From positions 1 through 21,059 of IMG/VR virus record IMGVR_UViG_3300049846_003059: a stretch of 21,059 bases of DNA; one strand, given 5' to 3'. Both the position numbers and the translations under genes were made by a program. The DNA is from a virus. Position 1 is the first letter of the stretch; every line of letters begins with the position of its first letter. The notes under the pieces were generated by a model, which saw only the letters and a program-made list of their open reading frames with translations, did no database searches and had not been told where the DNA came from. Positions 3,790-21,059 of the stretch are shown piece by piece.

Positions 3790-4347
3790 ATGGAACACTT
3801 ACTTTATAAGTTAACGGCACCCAATGGGAAGGTTTATATTGGTAGGACGAAAGAGTGGAAAAATAGGTTAAAAGATCATAAACACTGTGCATATACTAAA
3901 AAATTACAACAACATTTGTACAAATCTATCAGAAAGTATGGATGGGAGAATTTTACTAAAGAAATACTCTGTACTGCACCCACCGAAGAAGCAGCTATCA
4001 TATTAGAAGAATCTCTTATACTTAAATTTGATTCTGTGGAAAACGGATTGAATGAATCCTACAGTGGAGCAGGTGGTGGTGGAGTTTTTGAAAATCCAAA
4101 AGTAAAGGAACGGCATCGGACAACTCTCAGTAAGATGTTTTCCGGCAAAAACAATCCCATGTACGGTCGTAATCAAAGTGAAGAGGCAAAAGCAAAGCAG
4201 CGAGAGATGGCAAAAGGCCGATTCAGCCTACAATGGTTCATTGATCGTCACGGTGAAGTCGAGGGAACTAGATTATACAACGAACGAAGCAGTAAGCTGA
4301 GTAGTAGAAAACTTTCCCGAGATTCGTTTGGTAGATATACTAAATAA
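3790..4347 (+). CDS. GIY-YIG homing endonuclease with NUMOD3 motif
   Basis: 185 residues. The GIY-YIG nuclease domain (about 1-95) shows LLYKL at 4-8 and VYIGRT at 15-20 (the first triplet is degenerate, LLY), the catalytic-type Arg in R26-L-K-D-H30, a Glu pair at 73-74 where the metal-binding Glu is expected, and NGLNES at 85-90. A NUMOD3 DNA-binding motif follows (SGKNNPMYGRNQSEEAKAK, about 118-136). A C-terminal helical segment (WFIDRHGEVEGTRLYNER) is common in phage free-standing endonucleases. Such enzymes cut a related phage genome near their own insertion site and spread by repair, like the T4 Seg proteins. There is no sign of an intron; the gene sits between complete genes. An AAGGAG site lies 6 nt before the ATG. 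AT-rich codon use unlike the capsid gene suggests it is a mobile insertion. Confidence 0.9.
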   Translation: MEHLLYKLTAPNGKVYIGRTKEWKNRLKDHKHCAYTKKLQQHLYKSIRKYGWENFTKEILCTAPTEEAAIILEESLILKFDSVENGLNESYSGAGGGGVFENPKVKERHRTTLSKMFSGKNNPMYGRNQSEEAKAKQREMAKGRFSLQWFIDRHGEVEGTRLYNERSSKLSSRKLSRDSFGRYTK

Positions 4348-10223: not shown

Positions 10224-10559
10224 ATGGCAGACTATACAGAATTTTCCATTGGACAAGGTGAGACATTCAAATTACTCACACAGATTCGGGATGGTACGAA
10301 CACTCCTCTAGACATTACCAGTTGCTCCTTTAGCGGTCAGATACGAGAAACATACGACAGTGAAGATATTGCTGCATCATTTGATTTTGACAAAATATCA
10401 CCATATCAATCTGGATCACTATATGTGTATCTTTCTTCGTCAGTTACATTGACATTAGGAGATCGTTCCTATGTCTATGACGTATATTACACAACTGGTT
10501 CATACACACGACGAATTTTGGAGGGGAAATTTATCGTTCGTCCAGCGGTGACTAAATAA
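10224..10559 (+). CDS. Small beta-domain virion protein (fibre or baseplate associated)
   Basis: 111 residues, almost wholly beta-strand in character. It has the pattern of a common phage tail or fibre domain: a start like F-x-x-x-Q-G-x-x-[FY]-x-L (FSIGQGETFKLLTQIRDG), then T-P-L-D-I-T-S-C-S-F-x-G-Q-I-R, then a Gly/Ser turn and YVYDVYYTTG, ending LEGKFIVRPAVTK. Domains of this pattern occur in fibre, upper-baseplate and virion-attached proteins; the exact role is unknown. It is preceded by the unusual site CGGGGTATAAT. The stop overlaps the next start by 1 nt (TAATG), which implies translational coupling and a likely joint role with the short fibre downstream. Confidence 0.65.
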   Translation: MADYTEFSIGQGETFKLLTQIRDGTNTPLDITSCSFSGQIRETYDSEDIAASFDFDKISPYQSGSLYVYLSSSVTLTLGDRSYVYDVYYTTGSYTRRILEGKFIVRPAVTK

Positions 10560-11419
10560 TGTCCGATGATATCAATTTGGATGTGCCAGATCTTAAAGTA
10601 ATTGTAGATAAACCAGATCATTACCATATTTTACTACAAAATACTGTTTACAATGCTCTTTTTCAAGATCAGGAGGCATATTTTGTTCACTTATCCCAAT
10701 CAAGTGCTGCAAATGTCATCGTAAACACGCCAGATCATTATCATGTTACCGTACAAAGTAGTGATAACAAAGTTTTTCTTGAAAATCCAGAACAATACTT
10801 AGTTCAACTATCCCAACCAAATACCAGCGTCATTGGATTACCACTTTCCGCCGTATTTGCTATTTCATCCAGTTATGCCCTAACAGGTTCCTATGCAATA
10901 ACTTCATCATATAGTGTCACCTCGTCCTACGCAGAAAATGCTGGTGCTTCGTTCCCCTACACCGGATCGGCACAAATTACCGGATCGGTTGGAATTACAG
11001 GTAGTCTTACTGTTAAATCTGGTTCTAATTGTATTTTACATGTTGATCCATCCGGGATGGTTGGTGTTAATCTGTGCAATCCACAGTATGCACTACATGT
11101 ATCTGGTGCTATTTTTGCTACAGATGATGTGACAGCATTTTCTGATCGCAGAGTAAAGACTGATATCGTTCCGATTTATTTTGCGCTGAGCAAGGTGCAA
11201 CAAATGCAGGGAGTGACATTTAAACGAATCAATGATCCCACCAACCGTATTCATATGGGCTTTATTGCTCAAGATGTACAAGAAATACTTCCCGAAGTGG
11301 TCGTTGGTAGTGATTTGACAGGTTACGGTGTCAGTTATGGCAATATAACTGCTGTCTTGGTGGAAGCAATAAAAGAACTCAAGAAAGAAATAGATGAATT
11401 AAGATACGGTTTGGAGTAA
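10559..11419 (+). CDS. Short tail fibre with C-terminal S74 intramolecular chaperone
   Basis: 286 residues in three parts. Residues 12-90 hold four degenerate repeats of about 19 aa ending in Y-x-[VI]-x-[LV]-[SQ] (PDHYHILLQ, EAYFVHLSQ, PDHYHVTVQ, PEQYLVQLSQ). Residues 100-155 hold Ser-Tyr-Ala and ITGS repeats (SSSYALTGSYAITSSYSVTS) typical of trimeric phage fibres. Residues 191-286 form a peptidase S74/intramolecular chaperone domain: FSDRRVKTDI with the Ser195-Lys200 dyad, then HMGFIAQDVQEILPEVV, then a C-terminal helix with AVLVEAIKELKKEIDELR. In the family (endosialidase-type fibres) the chaperone trimerises, guides folding of the beta-helical stalk, and cuts itself off just before the Ser. 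Cleavage here would leave a 194-residue fibre. It lies next to the repeat genes, in a host-interaction module. Confidence 0.88.
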   Translation: MSDDINLDVPDLKVIVDKPDHYHILLQNTVYNALFQDQEAYFVHLSQSSAANVIVNTPDHYHVTVQSSDNKVFLENPEQYLVQLSQPNTSVIGLPLSAVFAISSSYALTGSYAITSSYSVTSSYAENAGASFPYTGSAQITGSVGITGSLTVKSGSNCILHVDPSGMVGVNLCNPQYALHVSGAIFATDDVTAFSDRRVKTDIVPIYFALSKVQQMQGVTFKRINDPTNRIHMGFIAQDVQEILPEVVVGSDLTGYGVSYGNITAVLVEAIKELKKEIDELRYGLE

Positions 11420-11442: not shown

Positions 11443-12084
11443 ATGCCATCAGCAACACCAACAAGAACACCCTCTAGAACACCTTCAATAACACCTACAA
11501 GAACACCAACAATCAGTGTTACACCAACGATCAGTGTTACACCAACTATCACACCATCTATCACTCCAACGATTAGTGAAACACCTAGCGTAACACCAAG
11601 TATTACACCATCTATTACACCAACAATAACACCAACTATTAGTGAAACACCGAGTGTTACACCATCTATAACGCCAAGTATTACAGCAACCATCAGTGTT
11701 ACCCCCAGTGTAACGCCAAGTATTACAGCAACCATCAGTGTTACCCCCAGTGTAACACCAAGTATTACACCATCTATAACGCCAAGTATTACAGCAACCA
11801 TCAGTGTAACACCATCAGTTACACCTAGTGTAACACCATCGATTAGTATCACCCCATCCGTTACACCATCTATTACACCAAGTATTACTCCGACAATTAG
11901 CATAACACCTTCTATTACACCGTCAATTACGGTTTCGGTGACACCTTCTCCAAGTTTGATTAGTGGATTTGCATTAGCAAAAGTGTGGTTTTATTTAGAC
12001 AATCCGCCAACGTGGGTAGACGAAACCGCAGACGCGGATAGTGGTGCTACGAATGATGTATTGGGACCATATTATGATGGGTAA
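11443..12084 (+). CDS. Ser/Thr-Pro-Ile/Val repeat protein, short form
   Basis: 213 residues. There is no globular N-terminal domain: repeats begin at once ([15 protein letters not shown]) and run to about residue 168. The motif is S-I-T-P and P-T-I-S-V-T-P, the same repeat as in the giant gene downstream. Two sites read ISETPS, placing Glu in the hydrophobic register. The last 45 residues are a non-repetitive, Trp-containing acidic tail ([20 protein letters not shown], then ending LGPYYDG). The start has a weak CCGGGAT site 7 nt upstream, and the gene follows the fibre stop by 23 nt. Function is unknown. It could be a structural partner, a truncated relative, or a recombination source for the giant gene. 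The continuous frame, the conserved parity of the repeat and the distinct C-terminal domain argue that it is a real coding gene. Confidence 0.75.
11671..11754 (+). repeat. Two exact tandem copies of a 42-nt unit
   Basis: 11671-11712 and 11713-11754 are identical, each encoding 14 residues ([14 protein letters not shown]). A third partial copy follows after an inserted stretch (from about 11764). Exact identity at synonymous positions, where other repeats in the gene differ, indicates a recent duplication. Confidence 0.85.
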
Positions 12085-12114: not shown

Positions 12115-15100
12115 ATGGCAGCACCAACATATGTAGGCATAGGTACAACAGGTACCGTAGCAAGTGGTAACTTAACATTAAATTATCCTACAACTTCATC
12201 ATTGCAAGTTGGGGATATTCTTGTTGCCTGTATTACTTATCGTTCCAATGTTACCTTTACTCCGCCTGCTGGATGGGCACTCATTCAGTCCAGTTCAACA
12301 GGTAATACTACTGCAACACTTGGTACTGCTTCTGCGGCGATGTTTTGGGATGCATATGATGGTACTGGACTTTCTGCCGCATTTACGAGAACTGGTGGTG
12401 ATTTGGGTCATGGTGCTATCATTGCTATTCGTGGGTGTGATTCTAGTACTCCTGTAGATGCTTCGTCTTTAGTTCTTCGTACTGGTACTGGTGCCGGTGC
12501 GATGGCATTTTCCAACATTACCACTGCTGGTGATTATTTCCTTGTCTGGCAAATTTCATCGGGTGATAACTCTACAAATAGCGCTGAATCAACTACTACA
12601 CCGAGTACTGCATGGCAAAATCCACTGGATGCCGGTACTAATACTGGTGCAGACGGTGGTATTTGTATTTTACTTAATTCTGGATCGGGAGCTATTACCA
12701 CTGCGGGATCTGCTGCCACAGCGTCTGCGAACCAGACAGCAGTAGTTATTCTGGCGGCATTTAAACCACCGGCACCTTCACCAACGCCAACACCAAGTAT
12801 TACGCCAAGTATTACTCCATCGATTAGTGTAACTCCGTCGATTACACCGTCAGTAACACCATCGATTACACCGTCAGTAACACCATCGATTACACCATCG
12901 ATTACACCATCGATTACACCTAGTATCAGCGTCACACCTAGTGTTACACCGTCCATTACACCTAGTATTACACCGTCAATTACGCCATCTATCACACCAA
13001 CTATTAGTGAAACACCCAGCGTAACAGCATCAATTACTCCAACAATTACACCAACCATAAGTGTAACTCCGAGTATTACCGCATCAATTACTCCAACAAT
13101 TACACCAACCATAAGTGTAACTCCGAGTATTACACCATCGGTTACACCAACTACCACACCTACAATTAGCATCACACCTAGTGTAACGCCAACAATAACA
13201 CCAACGATCAGTGTTACACCATCTGTAACTCCAAGTGTAACACCATCGATTACTCCAACGATTAGTATCACCCCAAGTGTTACTCCATCCACTACGCCAA
13301 CAATCAGTGTCACTCCGAGTGTGACACCATCGATTACTCCAACGATTAGTATTACACCGTCAATTACACCAAGTATTACAGTATCAGTTACACCAACGAC
13401 AAGTGTTACACCAACAATTACACCATCCATTACGCCAACGATCAGTATCACATCAACAATTACACCATCGATTACACCATCGATTACACCATCGATTACT
13501 CCAACGATTAGTGTGACACCTAGTGTTACATCGTCTATAACTCCATCTATAACGCCAACGATCAGTGTTACACCGAGTATATCACCGTCTATTACACCTA
13601 GTATCACTCCTTCTATTACGCTGTCAATCAGTGTTACACCGTCTATTACACCAAGTATCACGCCAAGTATTACTCCATCTATAACACCGAGTATTAGTGT
13701 CACACCTTCAGTAACACCTTCTATTACGCCATCAATAACACCTTCCATTAGTGTCACGCCGAGTATTACACCAAGTATTACTCCATCTATAACACCGAGT
13801 ATTAGTGTAACACCAAGTATCACACCAAGCGTGACACCATCCATTAGTGTCACGCCATCTAGAACGCCTAGTATCACCCCGAGCGTCACGCCAAGTATTA
13901 GTGTAACACCTAGTATCACACCGAGTATTACACCAACGATTAGTGTAACACCATCTATTACATCAAGTATTACACCAAGCACAACACCATCAATAACACC
14001 GAGTATCAGTGTTACGCCATCCATAACGCCGAGTATTACTCCAAGTGTGACACCGAGTGTCACTACATCGGTTACGCCAACGATTAGTGTTACCGCGAGC
14101 ATAACAGCATCAGTTACACCAACGATTAGTGTAACACCATCTATTACATCAAGTATTACTCCATCTATTACTCCAACAATTACACCAACGATTAGTGTAA
14201 CACCATCTATTACTCCAACAGTTACACCAACTACCAGTGTTACACCGTCTATAACATCTAGTATTACGCCAAGTATAAGTGTGTCGGTATCATTTGGTTC
14301 TTCTCCATCTACTACACCAAGTATTACTTCGACAATTAGTTTAACACCTTCTATTACACCAAGTATTACAACTTCTATTACACCAAGTACCACACCTTCA
14401 ATTACGCCAACGATTAGTATCACCCCAAGTGTAACACCAACGATCACACCAACGATTAGTGTGACACCATCCGTGACACCAAGTATCACGCCAACAATCA
14501 CACCAACAATCAGTGTAACGCCATCTATTACACCAAGTGTTACTCCAACAATCACACCAACCACCAGTGTAACTCCAAGTATAACGCCAAGTATTACACC
14601 AACACGAAGTTCAACTATTAGTGTGACACCAAGTATTACATCAAGTATTACGGCATCTATTACACCAACCACCAGTATTACGTCGAGTGTTACACCTTCT
14701 ATTACTGTATCTGTTAGTGTGTCACCGAGTATTACACCATCTGTAACACCAAGTATTAGTGTAACACCTTCAAAAACACCGAGTATTACTCCATCAATTA
14801 GTATATCATCGAGTACCACTCCTTCAAAAACTCCATCAATTATACCGTCGATTAGCATTACACCATCTATTACGCCAAGTATTAGTTCCTCCGAAATTAT
14901 TGCTATCACGCCTAGTATTACACCAACAATAACACCAAGTATTAGTACAAGTGCAATAATATTAATTACACCAACTGTCACTCCTACAATGCCAGCGTGT
15001 CTTCCATTTGTTGGCCCATTAAGTTTGGAAATGATTGCAATACATAAGAGAGAATTTGTGCCGGGGACACCGATAAGTTTAACAACACTATCGACAACCA

Positions 15101-18100
15101 ATATCAATCAAAATAGTTATTATCGTCCGGATGGAATAGCCCCACACAGTATTAGTGAATTTTTGGGATATTGTCATTATGCATCAGCTGTTCCAACAGT
15201 AACACCAACATATACTCCAAGTACGACACCAACTCAATTTCCATTTATTACACCGTCGATTACGCCAACTATTAGTGTAACACCATCGATTACGCCAACC
15301 ATTATACCGACTATTAGTGTTTCACCATCTAACACACCAAGTACAACAGTTTCAATTAGTGTCACACCGAGTATTACATCATCTATCACACCAGCTATTA
15401 GTGTTACACCTTCAGTAACGCCAAGTATAACACCATCAATCACATCAAGTATTAGTATCACACCAAGTACTACACCTTCTATTACTTCAAGTATTAGTAC
15501 TACACCTAGTATCACGCCATCTATTACTTCATCCGTTAGTGCAACCCCAAGTGTTACACCATCCATTACACCTACAAAAACACCAACCATTAGTATAACA
15601 CCATCAATTACATCAAGTATTACACCTTCTATAACACCAACAATCAGTGTTACGCCTAGTGTAACTCCAACGCGAACACCAACGATTAGTATAACACCAA
15701 GTGTTACGCTAAGCGTGACACCATCAATTACATCAACGATTAGTGTAACACCGTCTATCACACCAAGTATTACAGCATCAGTTACACCATCAATTAGTAT
15801 AACACCATCAATTACATCAAGTATTACACCTTCTATAACACCAACGATAAGTGTAACAACATCCATCACTCCAACTATTACACCGTCCATAACTTCATCT
15901 ATTAGTGTATCACCATCTATAACACCGTCTGTTACTCCAACTATCACACCGTCTATCACACCATCTATTACTGGTACACCGGGTGCAAGTGTTACGGCAA
16001 GTATTACACCAAGTATTACACCAACACGAACTCCAACCATTAGTATAACACCAAGTATTACATCGACAATCACTCCAACAATTACACCAACGATTAGTGT
16101 AACACCATCTATTACGCCAAGTGTTACTTCGTCTATCACGCCAACCATTAGTATAACACCATCTATTACGCCAAGTATCACGCCAACACGAACACCGACA
16201 ATTAGTATAACACCGTCTATTACACCAAGTATCACGCCAACACAAACACCAACCATTAGTGTAACACCGTCTGTCACACCGAGTATTACACCATCGATTA
16301 GCGTAACACCTAGCGTTACACCAAGTATTACACCAACACGAACTCCAACAATTAGTATTACACCGTCTATAACGGCAACAATTACTCCATCTATTAGTGT
16401 GACGCCGAGCATTACATCGTCTATCACACCAACCATTAGTATAACACCTAGTATTACTTCAAGTGTTACTCCAACAATTACATCAACTATTAGTATTACA
16501 CCAAGTGTAACACCAACGCGAACCCCAACGATTAGTATTACACCAAGTGTTACACCGAGTATTACACCGTCTGTAACACCAAGTATTACGCCAACAATTA
16601 GTGTAACACCCAGTATTACACCATCTATAACTCCATCCGTAACACCGACAATCAGTGTCACTCCGAGTATTACACCATCCATTACTCCATCTATTACACC
16701 AACGATTAGTGTGACACCATCTGTAACACCGTCTGTAACACCAACCATTAGTATCACACCAACGATTACACCGTCTATTACGCCAAGTATTACTTCATCT
16801 ATCACGCCAACTATTAGTATAACATCAAGCGTAACTCCATCCATTACCCCGAGTATTACAGCATCAGTTACACCAACGATTAGTACCACTCCAAGCGTGA
16901 CACCTTCGGTTACGCCAACGATCAGTGTCACTCCAAGTATCACACCGTCTATAACAGCATCAATTACACCATCAATTAGTATAAGTCCATCATCTACTCC
17001 GAGCATTACACCAACGATCAGTATAACACCTAGTATTACCCCAAGCATTACAGCAAGTATTACACCATCTATTACATCAACGATCAGTATAACACCTAGT
17101 ATTACTCCGAGCATTACAGCAAGTATCACACCAACACGAACTCCAACAATTAGTATCACTCCAAGTGTGACACCATCTATTACACCAACCATCAGTGTGA
17201 CGCCAAGTGTTACACCGTCTGTAACGCCGACACAAACACCAACCATTAGTACCACCCCGTCTATTACACCAACGATTAGTGTAACACCTTCTATTACGCC
17301 AAGTATTACTTCATCTATCACGCCAACCATTAGTATTACGCCAAGTGTAACACCTTCAGTTACGCCAACTATAACACCAACGATTAGTATCACCCCAAGC
17401 GTAACACCAAGTATCACGCCAACAATCACACCAACGATCAGTATAACACCATCTATTACACCAAGTATTACTTCATCTATTACACCAACGATTAGTATCA
17501 CCCCGAGTGTGACGCCAACAATCAGTGTCACTCCAAGTGTAACACCAACTATTACGCCAAGTATTACACCAACGATCACACCAACGATTAGTATAACACC
17601 GTCAATAACACCTAGCATAACGGCATCGATTACGCCAACGATTACGCCAACGATTAGTATCACCCCAAGTGTAACACCAACGATTAGTGTGACACCATCC
17701 GTGACACCAAGTATTACAGCATCAGTTACACCAACAATTAGCGTAACTCCATCGGTTACACCATCAATTACCCCATCCATTAGTGTAACGCCAAGTATAA
17801 CTTCAAGTATAACACCTTCTATTACGCCAACCATTAGCGTAACACCGAGCATCACTCCAACAATTACACCAACGATTAGTACAACACCAAGTGTTACGCC
17901 AAGTGTTACTCCAACTATAACACCAACCATTAGCGTAACACCGAGCATCACTCCAACAATTACACCAACGATTAGTACAACACCAAGTGTTACGCCAAGT
18001 GTTACTCCAACTATAACACCAACAATTAGTGTAACCCCAAGTATTACTCCAACGAGAACACCAACTATTAGTATAACACCATCGGTTACACCATCTATTA

Positions 18101-21059
18101 CGCCAACGATTACGCCAACGATTAGTGTCACCCCAAGTATTACTCCAACGGTCACACCAACGATCAGTATAACACCATCTATTACACCAAGTGTGACTCC
18201 AACCATTACCCCAACCATTAGTGTAACACCTTCAGTTACGCCAAGTGTTACGGCAACCATTAGTATAACACCTAGTATAACTCCAAGTATAACGGCATCT
18301 GTAACACCAACAATTAGTGTAACCCCAAGTATTACTCCAACGAGAACACCAACTATTAGTATAACACCATCGGTTACACCATCTATTACGCCAACTATAA
18401 CACCAACAATTAGTATCACCCCAAGTGTAACACCAACGGTCACACCAACGATCAGTACAACACCAAGTATTACACCAAGTGTGACTCCAACCATTACCCC
18501 AACCATTAGTGTAACACCTTCAATCACCCCTAGTATCACAGCAACCATTAGTATAACACCTTCAGTTACACCAAGTGTAACGGCATCTGTAACACCAACA
18601 ATTAGTGTAACACCATCAGTTACGCCTTCGGTAACACCAACGATCAGTATAACACCGAGTGTTACTCCGAGCATCACACCTACGATCACGCCAACTATTA
18701 GTATCACGCCAAGTGTGACTCCGTCAGTTACACCAACCATCAGTGTAACACCTAGTATAACTCCAAGTATTACTCCAACTAGAACGCCAACGATCAGTAT
18801 AACACCTTCAATCACCCCTAGTATCACAGCAACCATTAGTATAACACCTTCAGTTACACCAAGTGTAACGGCATCTGTAACACCAACGATTAGTACAACA
18901 CCAAGTGTTACTCCAACGAGAACCCCAACGATTAGTATAACACCAAGTGTTACACCAAGTGTGACGCCAACTATAACACCAACGATCAGTACAACACCAA
19001 GTGTTACACCAAGTGTGACGCCAACTATAACACCAACGATCAGTACAACACCAAGTGTTACACCAAGTGTGACGCCAACTATAACACCAACGATCAGTAC
19101 AACACCAAGTATTACACCAAGTGTGACGCCAACTATAACACCAACGATCAGTACAACACCAAGTATTACACCAAGTGTGACGCCAACAATTACCCCAACC
19201 ATTAGTATAACACCTTCAGTTACACCAAGTGTAACTCCTTCAATTACTTCAAGTATTACACCAACAATTAGTGTAACACCATCAGTTACACCTTCGGTAA
19301 CACCAACGATTACACCAACAATTAGTGTAACACCATCAGTTACGCCTTCGGTAACACCAACGATTACACCCACGATTAGTATAACACCGTCCATAACACC
19401 TAGCATAACGGTATCAGTTACGCCAACGATTACACCGACACCAAGTATACAATCGATTCGAGGAACACTTTATTTGGGTGATACCAATCCATTTTATGCA
19501 GTTCTTATTAAGGTTGGTACTGTAGGAGTACTAACTTCAGGAACTACATGGAGTTATTGGGATTCTGGATTAAGTAACTGGGTTGCAGTATCGAATTTAC
19601 AAGAAACTGTTACTGATCTATCCAATTTTGAAACCACAACAGAAGGAACAGTGTGGTGGACTGTATCTGGTACATGGGGACAAACATCGGTTAATGGAAG
19701 TACTCAATATTGGATAAAAATAGATAGTAATTCAACTGGTACAACTGTTGATACACAGCCACTGATAACATATATTAGGCGGAACACTGTACCATCTCCA
19801 ACACCAACGCCAACAATTAGTATAACACCAACTATTAGTGTAACACCAACTATTAGTGTAACACCAAGTATTACTCCGTCTATTACTCCAAGTATAACAC
19901 CTACTATTAGTGTAACTCCGTCAGTCACCCCATCTATTACTCCTAGTGTTACACCGTCTATTACGCCAACTATTAGTGTTACCCCAAGTGTTACTCCATC
20001 TATTACACCGAGTATTACAGCATCTATTACACCAAGTATTACTCCGACAATTAGTGTAACACCAAGTATTACTCCAACGCGAACGCCAACTATTAGTGTT
20101 ACCCCAAGTGTGACACCATCTATCACTCCATCCATTACTCCAACGATTAGTGTGACTCCATCTGTAACTCCAAGTGTAACACCATCCATTACCCCAACGA
20201 TTAGTGTGACTCCATCTGTAACTCCAAGCAGAACACCATCGGTTACGCCAACAATCAGTATTACTCCAAGTGTGACACCATCTATCACCCCAACTATTAG
20301 TATTACTCCAAGTGTGACACCATCGATTACTGCAACAATTACTCCAACAATTAGTGTAACTCCATCGGTTACACCATCTATTACTCCAACAATTAGTGTA
20401 ACACCATCGGTTACGCCATCCATTACCCCAACAACCAGTGTAACACCAAGTGTTACACCAAGTATTACAGCATCAGTTACACCAACCATCAGTATTACGC
20501 CAAGTGTAACACCATCAATTACACCAACGATTAGTATAACACCAAGTGTTACACCAAGTATAACACCAACGCGAACCCCAACGATTAGTATCACGCCAAG
20601 TGTGACACCGAGTATCACTCCAACAATTACACCAACGATTAGTACAACACCAAGTGTAACACCAACACGAACACCAACTATCAGTATCACGCCAAGTGTG
20701 ACACCATCTATCACCCCAACAATCACGCCGACCATTAGTGTGACACCGAGTATCACGCCAACAATCACACCAACCATTAGTATCACGCCAAGTGTTACTC
20801 CAACGAGAACACCAACCATTAGTATCACGCCAAGTGTGACACCATCTATCACACCAACGATCACACCAACTATCAGTGTAACGCCATCAGTTACTCCAAG
20901 TATTACACCAAGTATTAGTCTTGCGGTGAGTCTTACTCCAACCATTACTCCAACCATCAGTATTACGCCAAGTGTAACACCAACGCGAACTCCAACGATT
21001 AGTATAACACCAAGTGTTACGCCAAGTATCACACCAACCATTACTCCAACCATCAGTAT
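12115..21059 (+). CDS. Giant modular repeat protein (partial, at least 2,981 codons)
   Basis: The frame is continuous from ATG at 12115 to the window end without a stop, so the C-terminus is missing. Residues 1-220 form a beta-rich domain with [36 protein letters not shown] and a final VVILAAFK strand; similar domains occur in many phage and bacterial surface proteins. Then come repeat block 1 (221-958), a 68-aa island (959-1026, Cys962 and Cys1020), repeat block 2 (1027-2444), a Trp-rich 115-aa island (2445-2559), and repeat block 3 (2560 to the end). The repeat is built from SITP and PTISVTP, with Ser/Thr at every second residue. There is no signal peptide or membrane segment. The ribosome binding site is weak (GAAAG). 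Position after the fibre genes suggests a very long fibre or virion surface protein; this is inference. Frame continuity was checked line by line. Confidence 0.85.
12775..14988 (+). repeat. Repeat block 1 of the giant protein (12-nt/18-nt units)
   Basis: About 738 residues made of SITP (12 nt) and TISVTP (18 nt) units with many synonymous differences. Short exact tandem stretches occur, for example a 24-nt unit twice at 12841-12888 and a 12-nt unit twice at 12889-12912. The block becomes more degenerate towards its end ([18 protein letters not shown] near 14890-14970). Confidence 0.9.
13027..13134 (+). repeat. Tandem 54-nt duplication
   Basis: 13027-13080 and 13081-13134 differ only in the last base. 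Each encodes 18 residues ([18 protein letters not shown]), so this is a recent in-frame duplication. Confidence 0.85.
14989..15192 (+). other. Island domain 1 within the giant protein
   Basis: A 68-residue non-repetitive segment (residues 959-1026), in frame. It contains [20 protein letters not shown] and [11 protein letters not shown], with Cys at 962 and 1020. The I-S-L-x-x-L ... I-S-[ED]-F-x-G-Y layout resembles a short motif seen in phage structural proteins (I-S-L-S ... L-S-x-F-Y-G). It may be a small folded module carried on the repeat stalk. Function is unknown. Confidence 0.6.
17827..18018 (+). repeat. Two exact tandem copies of a 96-nt unit
   Basis: 17827-17922 and 17923-18018 are identical over all 96 nt (32 residues each), although neighbouring units differ at many synonymous positions. 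Confidence 0.9.
18014..18877 (+). repeat. 288-nt higher-order repeat, three units
   Basis: 18014-18107 is identical to 18302-18395 (94 nt, offset 288). The block starting at 18512 is matched again starting at 18800 (offset 288) for about 90 nt. The stretches between these anchors also align at the same offset with scattered differences. Unit length is 96 residues. Units are about 18014-18301, 18302-18589 and 18590-18877, the last being more diverged in its first half. Confidence 0.8.
18961..19176 (+). repeat. Four tandem copies of a 54-nt unit
   Basis: Copies start at 18961, 19015, 19069 and 19123, each beginning GTGACGCCAACTATAAC and encoding 18 residues. Copies 1-2 carry GTT and copies 3-4 carry ATT at one codon (Val to Ile); otherwise they are identical. 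This is the most homogeneous stretch of the gene. Confidence 0.92.
19447..19791 (+). other. Island domain 2, Trp-rich, within the giant protein
   Basis: A 115-residue in-frame, non-repetitive segment (residues 2445-2559) with seven Trp and beta-strand character: [71 protein letters not shown]. The pattern Y-W-x-x-x-x-x-x-W-x-x-[LV] ... G-T-V-x-W-x-V-x-x-x-W ... V-N-G-x-x-x-Y-W-[IV]-[KR]-I recurs in beta-sandwich domains of phage and bacterial surface proteins. Many exposed Trp would fit carbohydrate or surface binding, which is inference. Confidence 0.65.
19792..21059 (+). repeat. Repeat block 3 of the giant protein, runs off the window
   Basis: At least 422 residues of the same [10 protein letters not shown] repeat, still in frame at the last base. 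Arg marks (P-T-R-T-P-T) recur near 20071, 20567, 20665, 20810 and 20980. Relative to blocks 1 and 2, the Ser/Thr register is on the opposite residue parity because island 2 shifts it by one. Within the block the parity is kept throughout. Confidence 0.9.

What the first reader, a model, noticed from the sequence alone, without database searches (positions are those of the whole stretch)
12115..21059. Giant (at least 2,981 codons) modular repeat gene in a T4-like fibre region
One frame stays open for 8.9 kb and leaves the window. It joins an N-terminal beta domain, about 2,580 Ser/Thr-Pro-Ile/Val repeat residues and two folded islands. If fully extended (about 0.33 nm per residue) the repeats alone in this window would span roughly 0.85 micrometre, several times a T4 virion. 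This suggests a very long tether, fibre or glycosylated brush, and I know of no characterised T4-type protein like it. The function is unknown.
Basis: partly seen in the sequence, partly recalled or inferred. Interest (0 to 1): 0.8.

Follow-up and report, generated by a model that had tools for sequence, protein, structure and literature searches.

The report
Giant alternating Ser/Thr phage stalk protein
A T4-like phage contig carries one of a widespread but, as far as we could find, undescribed class of giant phage proteins in which small folded tail-type domains are strung on thousands of residues where every second amino acid is serine or threonine, most likely a very long stalk or tether of the tail-fibre region that may be sugar-coated.

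Summary
In detail: one + strand frame runs from 12115 off the contig end (2,981 codons), with a 220-aa N-terminal beta domain, about 2,560 array residues and two folded islands. The real rule is stricter than "Ser/Thr-Pro-Ile/Val": every second residue is S or T (1,272 of 1,284 positions) and Pro-Pro spacings are always even. Codon third positions are scrambled between copies while the hydroxyls are kept, so the protein is under purifying selection.

The N-domain (confident model) matches phage minor tail proteins. Island 2 matches domains of phage-tail and injection-system baseplates. In a syntenic relative, island 1 is the N-terminus of a separate gene, so the window gene joins modules that can be separate. 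More distant phages carry tail-fibre, LamG-like or collagen-like stalk proteins at this locus.

The gene is not unique: viral contigs hold dozens of such proteins. One complete 5,472-aa example is identical in four contigs.

Most likely it is a virion tail/baseplate-associated modular adhesin on an extended (S/T-X)n stalk, possibly O-glycosylated. Virion location, glycosylation and the missing 3' end are unproven. New variant of a known kind: repeat-stalk phage tail proteins.

The parts
12115..21057 (+). Giant modular ORF, 2,981 codons, open at the contig end
12115..12780 (+). N-terminal beta domain (residues 1-222)
   Evidence: 89% identical in L004; 22 relatives in viral contigs; AlphaFold2 pLDDT 85.6, pTM 0.88; BFVD matches to S-CBWM1 gp97 and mycobacteriophage minor tail proteins
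12781..14979 (+). (S/T-X)n array 1, about 730 residues, slightly degenerate near its end
14989..15195 (+). Island 1 (residues 959-1027)
   Evidence: 62% identical to the N-terminus of a separate gene in L052; similar N-terminus in L121
15196..19443 (+). (S/T-X)n array 2, about 1,416 residues; higher-order periods of 14, 18, 32 and 96 residues
19447..19797 (+). Island 2, beta-sandwich
   Evidence: 65% identical in L052, remote copy in L205; AlphaFold2 pLDDT 79.8; PDB 9efk_M (LME-1 phage portal-tail complex) Z 8.2, baseplate chains Z 6.0-6.9
19798..21057 (+). (S/T-X)n array 3, at least 419 residues, runs off the contig
11443..12084 (+). Companion ORF, 213 aa: same array type plus a conserved 40-aa C-terminal cap, without the N-domain that its L052 counterpart has
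10559..11419 (+). Upstream fibre-type protein with Peptidase_S74 (endosialidase chaperone) C-terminus
   Evidence: Pfam PF13884 E 2.7e-18; PHROG tail fibre and baseplate hits
10224..10559 (+). Tail-associated protein (phrog_1084; phrog_3304 L-shaped tail fibre assembly)

Best explanation
A virion tail/baseplate-associated modular adhesin. Shown: an N-terminal phage-tail-type beta domain; three long arrays with S/T at every second residue; an inserted N-terminal-type module (island 1) and a baseplate-type beta-sandwich (island 2). Inferred: the N-domain anchors the protein to the tail or baseplate. The nearly uncharged, Gly-poor array of beta-branched residues and proline forms an extended flexible stalk. 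The beta-sandwich and the unseen C-terminal part bind host or matrix surfaces, so the phage captures hosts over a larger radius. Arrays lengthen and shorten by recombination between repeats, which also swaps and fuses the folded modules, while selection keeps the alternating hydroxyls. The stalk plays the part that collagen-like repeats play at the same locus in relatives.
For: Virion-gene context. Relatives at the same position encode MANEFIARKG-type proteins, LamG-like virion proteins and a 2,384-aa collagen-like tail fibre. The N-domain fold matches mycobacteriophage minor tail proteins and S-CBWM1 gp97, which is encoded next to an annotated tail fibre gene. Island 2 matches a phage portal-tail chain and injection-system baseplate chains. 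Module exchange: island 1 starts a separate gene in L052; different N-domains precede arrays at this locus in L004, L052 and L126. Purifying selection: between copies 18 codons apart S/T is kept in 98-99% while third positions match 40-48%, although only 19% of first or second position changes would keep S/T. Of 53 complete viral array ORFs, 38 have folded N and C ends.
Against: No proteomics or microscopy; virion location is inferred. The C-terminus is missing. No tail-fibre chaperone or trimerisation motif was shown for this gene. The closest isolates, Mel-JY01 and immuto, have no such array by a DNA pattern, so it is dispensable in the wider group. The island 2 match is to folds of several functions, and binding was not tested.
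Confidence: 0.55

Rival explanations
1. Mucin-like brush: the alternating S/T positions are O-glycosylated by phage or host enzymes, giving the virion a stiff glycan coat that binds or evades surface polymers.
For: A hydroxyl at every second residue with proline is a typical composition for O-glycosylation. A giant-array phage contig (G003) carries a sugar gene cluster (epimerases, FkbM methyltransferase, several glycosyltransferases); GT2 matches are 4-7 in G001, G003, G005 and G022 against 0-3 in most comparators. Virion glycosylation is known in mycobacteriophages (Freeman et al. 2023, seen only as a citation in PMC12619734).
Against: Several of the giant-array contigs are one phage lineage, so the correlation is not independent; G018, fetched for another array, also has 5; G004 has none and G002 one. 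No glycosyltransferase lies in this window. No glycosylation data.
Confidence: 0.2
2. Mostly neutral repeat expansion: a short S/T-P linker grew by slippage and its length has no function of its own.
For: Array length varies from about 14 repeats (L144) to hundreds at the same locus; repeats reach 118 identical bp, showing recent duplication; tandem repeats arise fast in other mobile elements (Borgs, PMC9879509).
Against: Strong purifying selection on hydroxyl positions and on the open frame over kilobases; identical 16.4-kb genes in four contigs; the same alternation grammar in arrays attached to many unrelated N-domains.
Confidence: 0.15
3. Not a virion part but a protein acting in or on the infected cell, for example a lysis-released or surface matrix protein.
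For: No direct virion evidence; the gene lies after, not within, the core tail genes.
Against: Tail-type domains and fibre-locus synteny; no signal-peptide-like N-terminus seen on inspection.
Confidence: 0.07
4. Assembly chimera joining two array genes of different origin.
For: Island 1 starts its own gene in L052; arrays are repetitive; contigs tend to break in arrays.
Against: Array 1 shares at most about 44 exact bp with array 2 among the longest repeats listed; giant genes of the same class are identical in four other contigs.
Confidence: 0.06

Closest known systems
Mycobacteriophage Tweety gp54 / Che8 gp57 / PMC gp51 tetrapeptide-repeat proteins (PMC2884959)
   Same: Phage proteins with conserved N and C ends and a 12-bp/tetrapeptide array of variable copy number (48, 26, 15); likely unstructured; function unknown
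   Different: Ala-Ala-x-x repeats, tens of copies, not in the tail operon; here S/T-X alternation, hundreds of copies, tail-fibre locus
Collagen-like phage tail fibres (phrog_30509, phrog_1806, phrog_6320)
   Same: Long low-complexity stalk in a tail-fibre protein; found at the same locus in relative L201
   Different: Gly-X-Y repeats there; the array here has 2 Gly in 1,416 residues
Borg amino-acid tandem-repeat proteins (PMC9879509)
   Same: In-frame repeats under selection, enriched in P and T with a P/T/S-rich group, often extracellular, thought disordered
   Different: Archaeal extrachromosomal elements; different proteins
Pro-Thr box linkers of secreted glycoside hydrolases (own knowledge)
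   Same: T/S-P rich extended linkers between folded binding domains, often glycosylated
   Different: Tens of residues, not thousands; not phage tail proteins
BACON tandem repeats in crAss-like tail proteins (PMC6949934)
   Same: Tail-associated repeat expansion thought to serve host binding
   Different: Repeats of a folded domain, not of a dipeptide

Membership tests
T4-like myovirus structural region | gp23-type capsid, sheath and tube genes upstream in order | tested here: met
   phrog_138 E 9e-64, phrog_23 E 3e-72, phrog_4542 E 8e-20; PF16724 gp15 E 2e-4, below its cut-off
T4 long tail fibre (gp34-gp37) | Sequence similarity of the giant ORF's folded parts to gp34/36/37 families | tested here: not met
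   No Pfam family passing its cut-off and no PHROG hit for the N-domain or islands
T4 long tail fibre (gp34-gp37) | Trimeric fibre, part of the virion | not testable with these tools
   Needs microscopy or proteomics
Phage minor tail protein N-domain fold | Same fold over most of the domain | tested here: met
   BFVD: S-CBWM1 gp97 E 1e-11, TMq 0.84; minor tail proteins of Shauna1 E 1e-6 and Tweety E 7e-5
Phage/injection-system baseplate beta-sandwich (island 2) | Same fold over the whole domain | tested here: met
   9efk_M Z 8.2, 104 aligned, rmsd 2.9, 26% identity; 9gtp, 9qgl, 6j0n Z 6.4-6.9; model pLDDT only 79.8
Tweety gp54-type tetrapeptide-repeat proteins | AAxx tetrapeptide array | tested here: not met
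   Array composition differs; the folded ends were not compared with gp54 itself
Mucin-type glycoprotein | PTS-rich tandem repeat domain | tested here: met
Mucin-type glycoprotein | O-glycosylation of the repeats | not testable with these tools
   Needs protein chemistry
Collagen-like tail fibre | Gly-X-Y repeats | tested here: not met
   2 Gly in 1,416 array residues

The most novel reading that the evidence does not exclude
Phages in several unrelated lineages have independently evolved micrometre-scale, strictly alternating (S/T-X)n polymers carried on the virion and decorated by phage-encoded glycosyltransferases: a viral mucin that forms a glycan brush or a capture tether far longer than the virion.
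Probability: 0.2. Interest if true: 0.85.

Novelty: new variant of a known kind. Interest (0 to 1): 0.62.

Why it matters
Complete members reach 5,472 codons, very large for a phage gene. Their simple, strict grammar in proteins with many different N-domains makes a testable claim about what the stalk must be (a hydroxyl at every second residue). If on virions, they would extend host capture well beyond known fibres or give phages a mucin-like coat, and they offer a natural repeat polymer to study. The arrays also appear to break short-read assemblies, so they are probably under-counted, and they seem to act as seams where adhesin modules are swapped.

Tried and rejected
Antisense coding (open frames of 857-1390 codons): rejected, since the domains with homologues lie in the + frame. 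Pfam, PHROG and PDB sequence searches of the N-domain and islands gave no convincing hit. Foldseek and VIA-align for the N-domain against PDB found nothing (best E 0.055, best Z 4.8). Island 2 alone as a viral-contig query found nothing; an alignment found L205. Query L120:13515-13717 was a coordinate slip, repeated correctly, without a match. blastn of the array against phage records found nothing, but the low-complexity filter limits this. The closest isolates by capsid lack a related DNA pattern. Literature searches found no description of giant phage S/T-X proteins, but the library is open-access only and matches words. The 3' end of this gene was not recovered. S/T occupancy is partly circular, because arrays were defined by it there; carry that claim.

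Full report
What is there. The window is a 21,059-bp IMG/VR viral contig. A frame opens at ATG 12115 and leaves the contig at 21057 without a stop: 2,981 codons. Upstream genes are T4-like virion genes: an acidic protein in the scaffold position, gp23-type capsid (phrog_138), a GIY-YIG endonuclease, a head-tail adaptor match, a gp15-like sheath stabiliser, sheath, tube, a phrog_1084 tail protein and a Peptidase_S74 fibre-type protein. The capsid protein is 52% identical to that of Flavobacterium phage immuto and 47% to that of Microcystis phage Mel-JY01, so the phage lies in that outer T4-like branch; its host is unknown.

The array. Three arrays, 2,560 residues in all, consist almost wholly of S, T, P, I and V. 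Amino-acid self-identity is 0.41 at even lags and 0.02 at odd lags: the true unit is two residues, [S/T]-X, with X mostly P, I or V. S/T fills 1,272 of 1,284 alternate positions, and distances between prolines are always even. Higher-order periods of 14, 18, 32 and 96 residues come from runs of xTP[S/T] broken by a two-residue phase shift. Copies 18 codons apart keep S/T at 98-99% of hydroxyl positions, while third codon positions match only 40-48%; random first or second position changes would keep S/T in 19%. This is protein-level purifying selection on an old array, and it argues for + strand coding.

The folded parts. The N-domain is 89% identical in contig L004, which has the same neighbours and a differently composed array. 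A profile finds 22 relatives in viral contigs, several near portal, capsid or tail-fibre genes. The model is confident (pLDDT 85.6, pTM 0.88), has no close PDB match but matches S-CBWM1 gp97 and mycobacteriophage minor tail proteins. Island 2 models as a beta-sandwich and matches a domain of the LME-1 phage portal-tail complex (Z 8.2) and injection-system baseplate chains (Z 6.0-6.9). Island 1 resembles N-terminal modules: it starts a separate gene in L052 and has a relative near the start of an array protein in L121.

Module exchange. In L052, from another metagenome, the same place holds two genes: gene A (another N-domain, array, 40-aa cap) and gene B (island 1, about 1,080-residue array, island 2, array, running off the contig). 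In the window, the counterpart of gene A has no N-domain (ORF 11443-12084), and gene B is fused behind the L004-type N-domain and array. L126 has yet another N-domain before an array. Arrays therefore seem to act as seams for recombination. This is inferred from a handful of related contigs.

The locus. Beyond the closest relatives, the same position holds tail-fibre-like proteins, LamG-like virion proteins and, in L201, a 2,384-aa collagen-like tail fibre. L144 has a complete 282-aa protein with 14 repeats at this place. This supports a stalk role: the low-complexity polymer is exchangeable.

The class. A six-unit pattern gives 69 stretches in 2.9 million viral contigs and 36 in 84,980 cellular genomes. 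Among the fetched loci, 128 viral ORF entries (overlapping loci not fully merged) carry at least 100 alternating residues against 3 bacterial; 53 are complete and 38 of these have folded ends on both sides; the N-terminal parts fall into 37 clusters. Giant complete cases: 2,940 aa (L120) and 5,472 aa (G003), the latter identical over 16,416 bp in G003, G022, G025 and G026; G001 has a frameshift after 12.6 kb. The finding is thus a member of a recurring class, not a singleton.

Mechanism. Best supported is a tail-associated adhesin with a very long, nearly uncharged, extended stalk. Glycosylation is attractive because of the hydroxyl alternation and because a giant-array contig carries a sugar-gene cluster, but the correlation is confounded by lineage. 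Neutral expansion may explain length changes but not the constraint.

Comparison with known kinds. Phage proteins with tetrapeptide arrays of variable copy number between conserved ends are on record (Tweety gp54 and relatives), as are collagen-like tail fibres and P/T-rich tandem-repeat proteins in Borgs. What differs here is the strict S/T-X alternation, the length, and the tail-fibre locus. I therefore file it as a new variant of a known kind.

Limits. One incomplete contig; no 3' end; no virion data; AlphaFold models from shallow alignments (island 2: 3 sequences); literature restricted to an open-access library.

Noticed in passing
3790-4347 +: GIY-YIG endonuclease with NUMOD3 directly behind the major capsid gene; a close copy precedes the same head-tail genes in L052. 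Likely a homing endonuclease.
   Followed up: partly
625-2088 +: Acidic, Glu-rich protein before the capsid gene with a TTG start by the mechanical ORF call; an ATG a few codons in (MAEFTNK) is the likelier start.
   Followed up: no
L004:9361-9900: A SAM-methyltransferase-like gene sits immediately upstream of the array gene in the relative, where the window has the small array ORF.
   Followed up: no
L310-L311 (contig G003, 56013-68119): Cluster of sugar epimerases, FkbM methyltransferase and glycosyltransferases in the contig with the 5,472-aa array gene.
   Followed up: partly
L201:12964-20115: 2,384-aa collagen-like tail fibre at the same locus in a relative.
   Followed up: partly
about 14986-14991 +: A methionine just before island 1 could be a remnant or internal start of the formerly separate gene B.
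   Followed up: no
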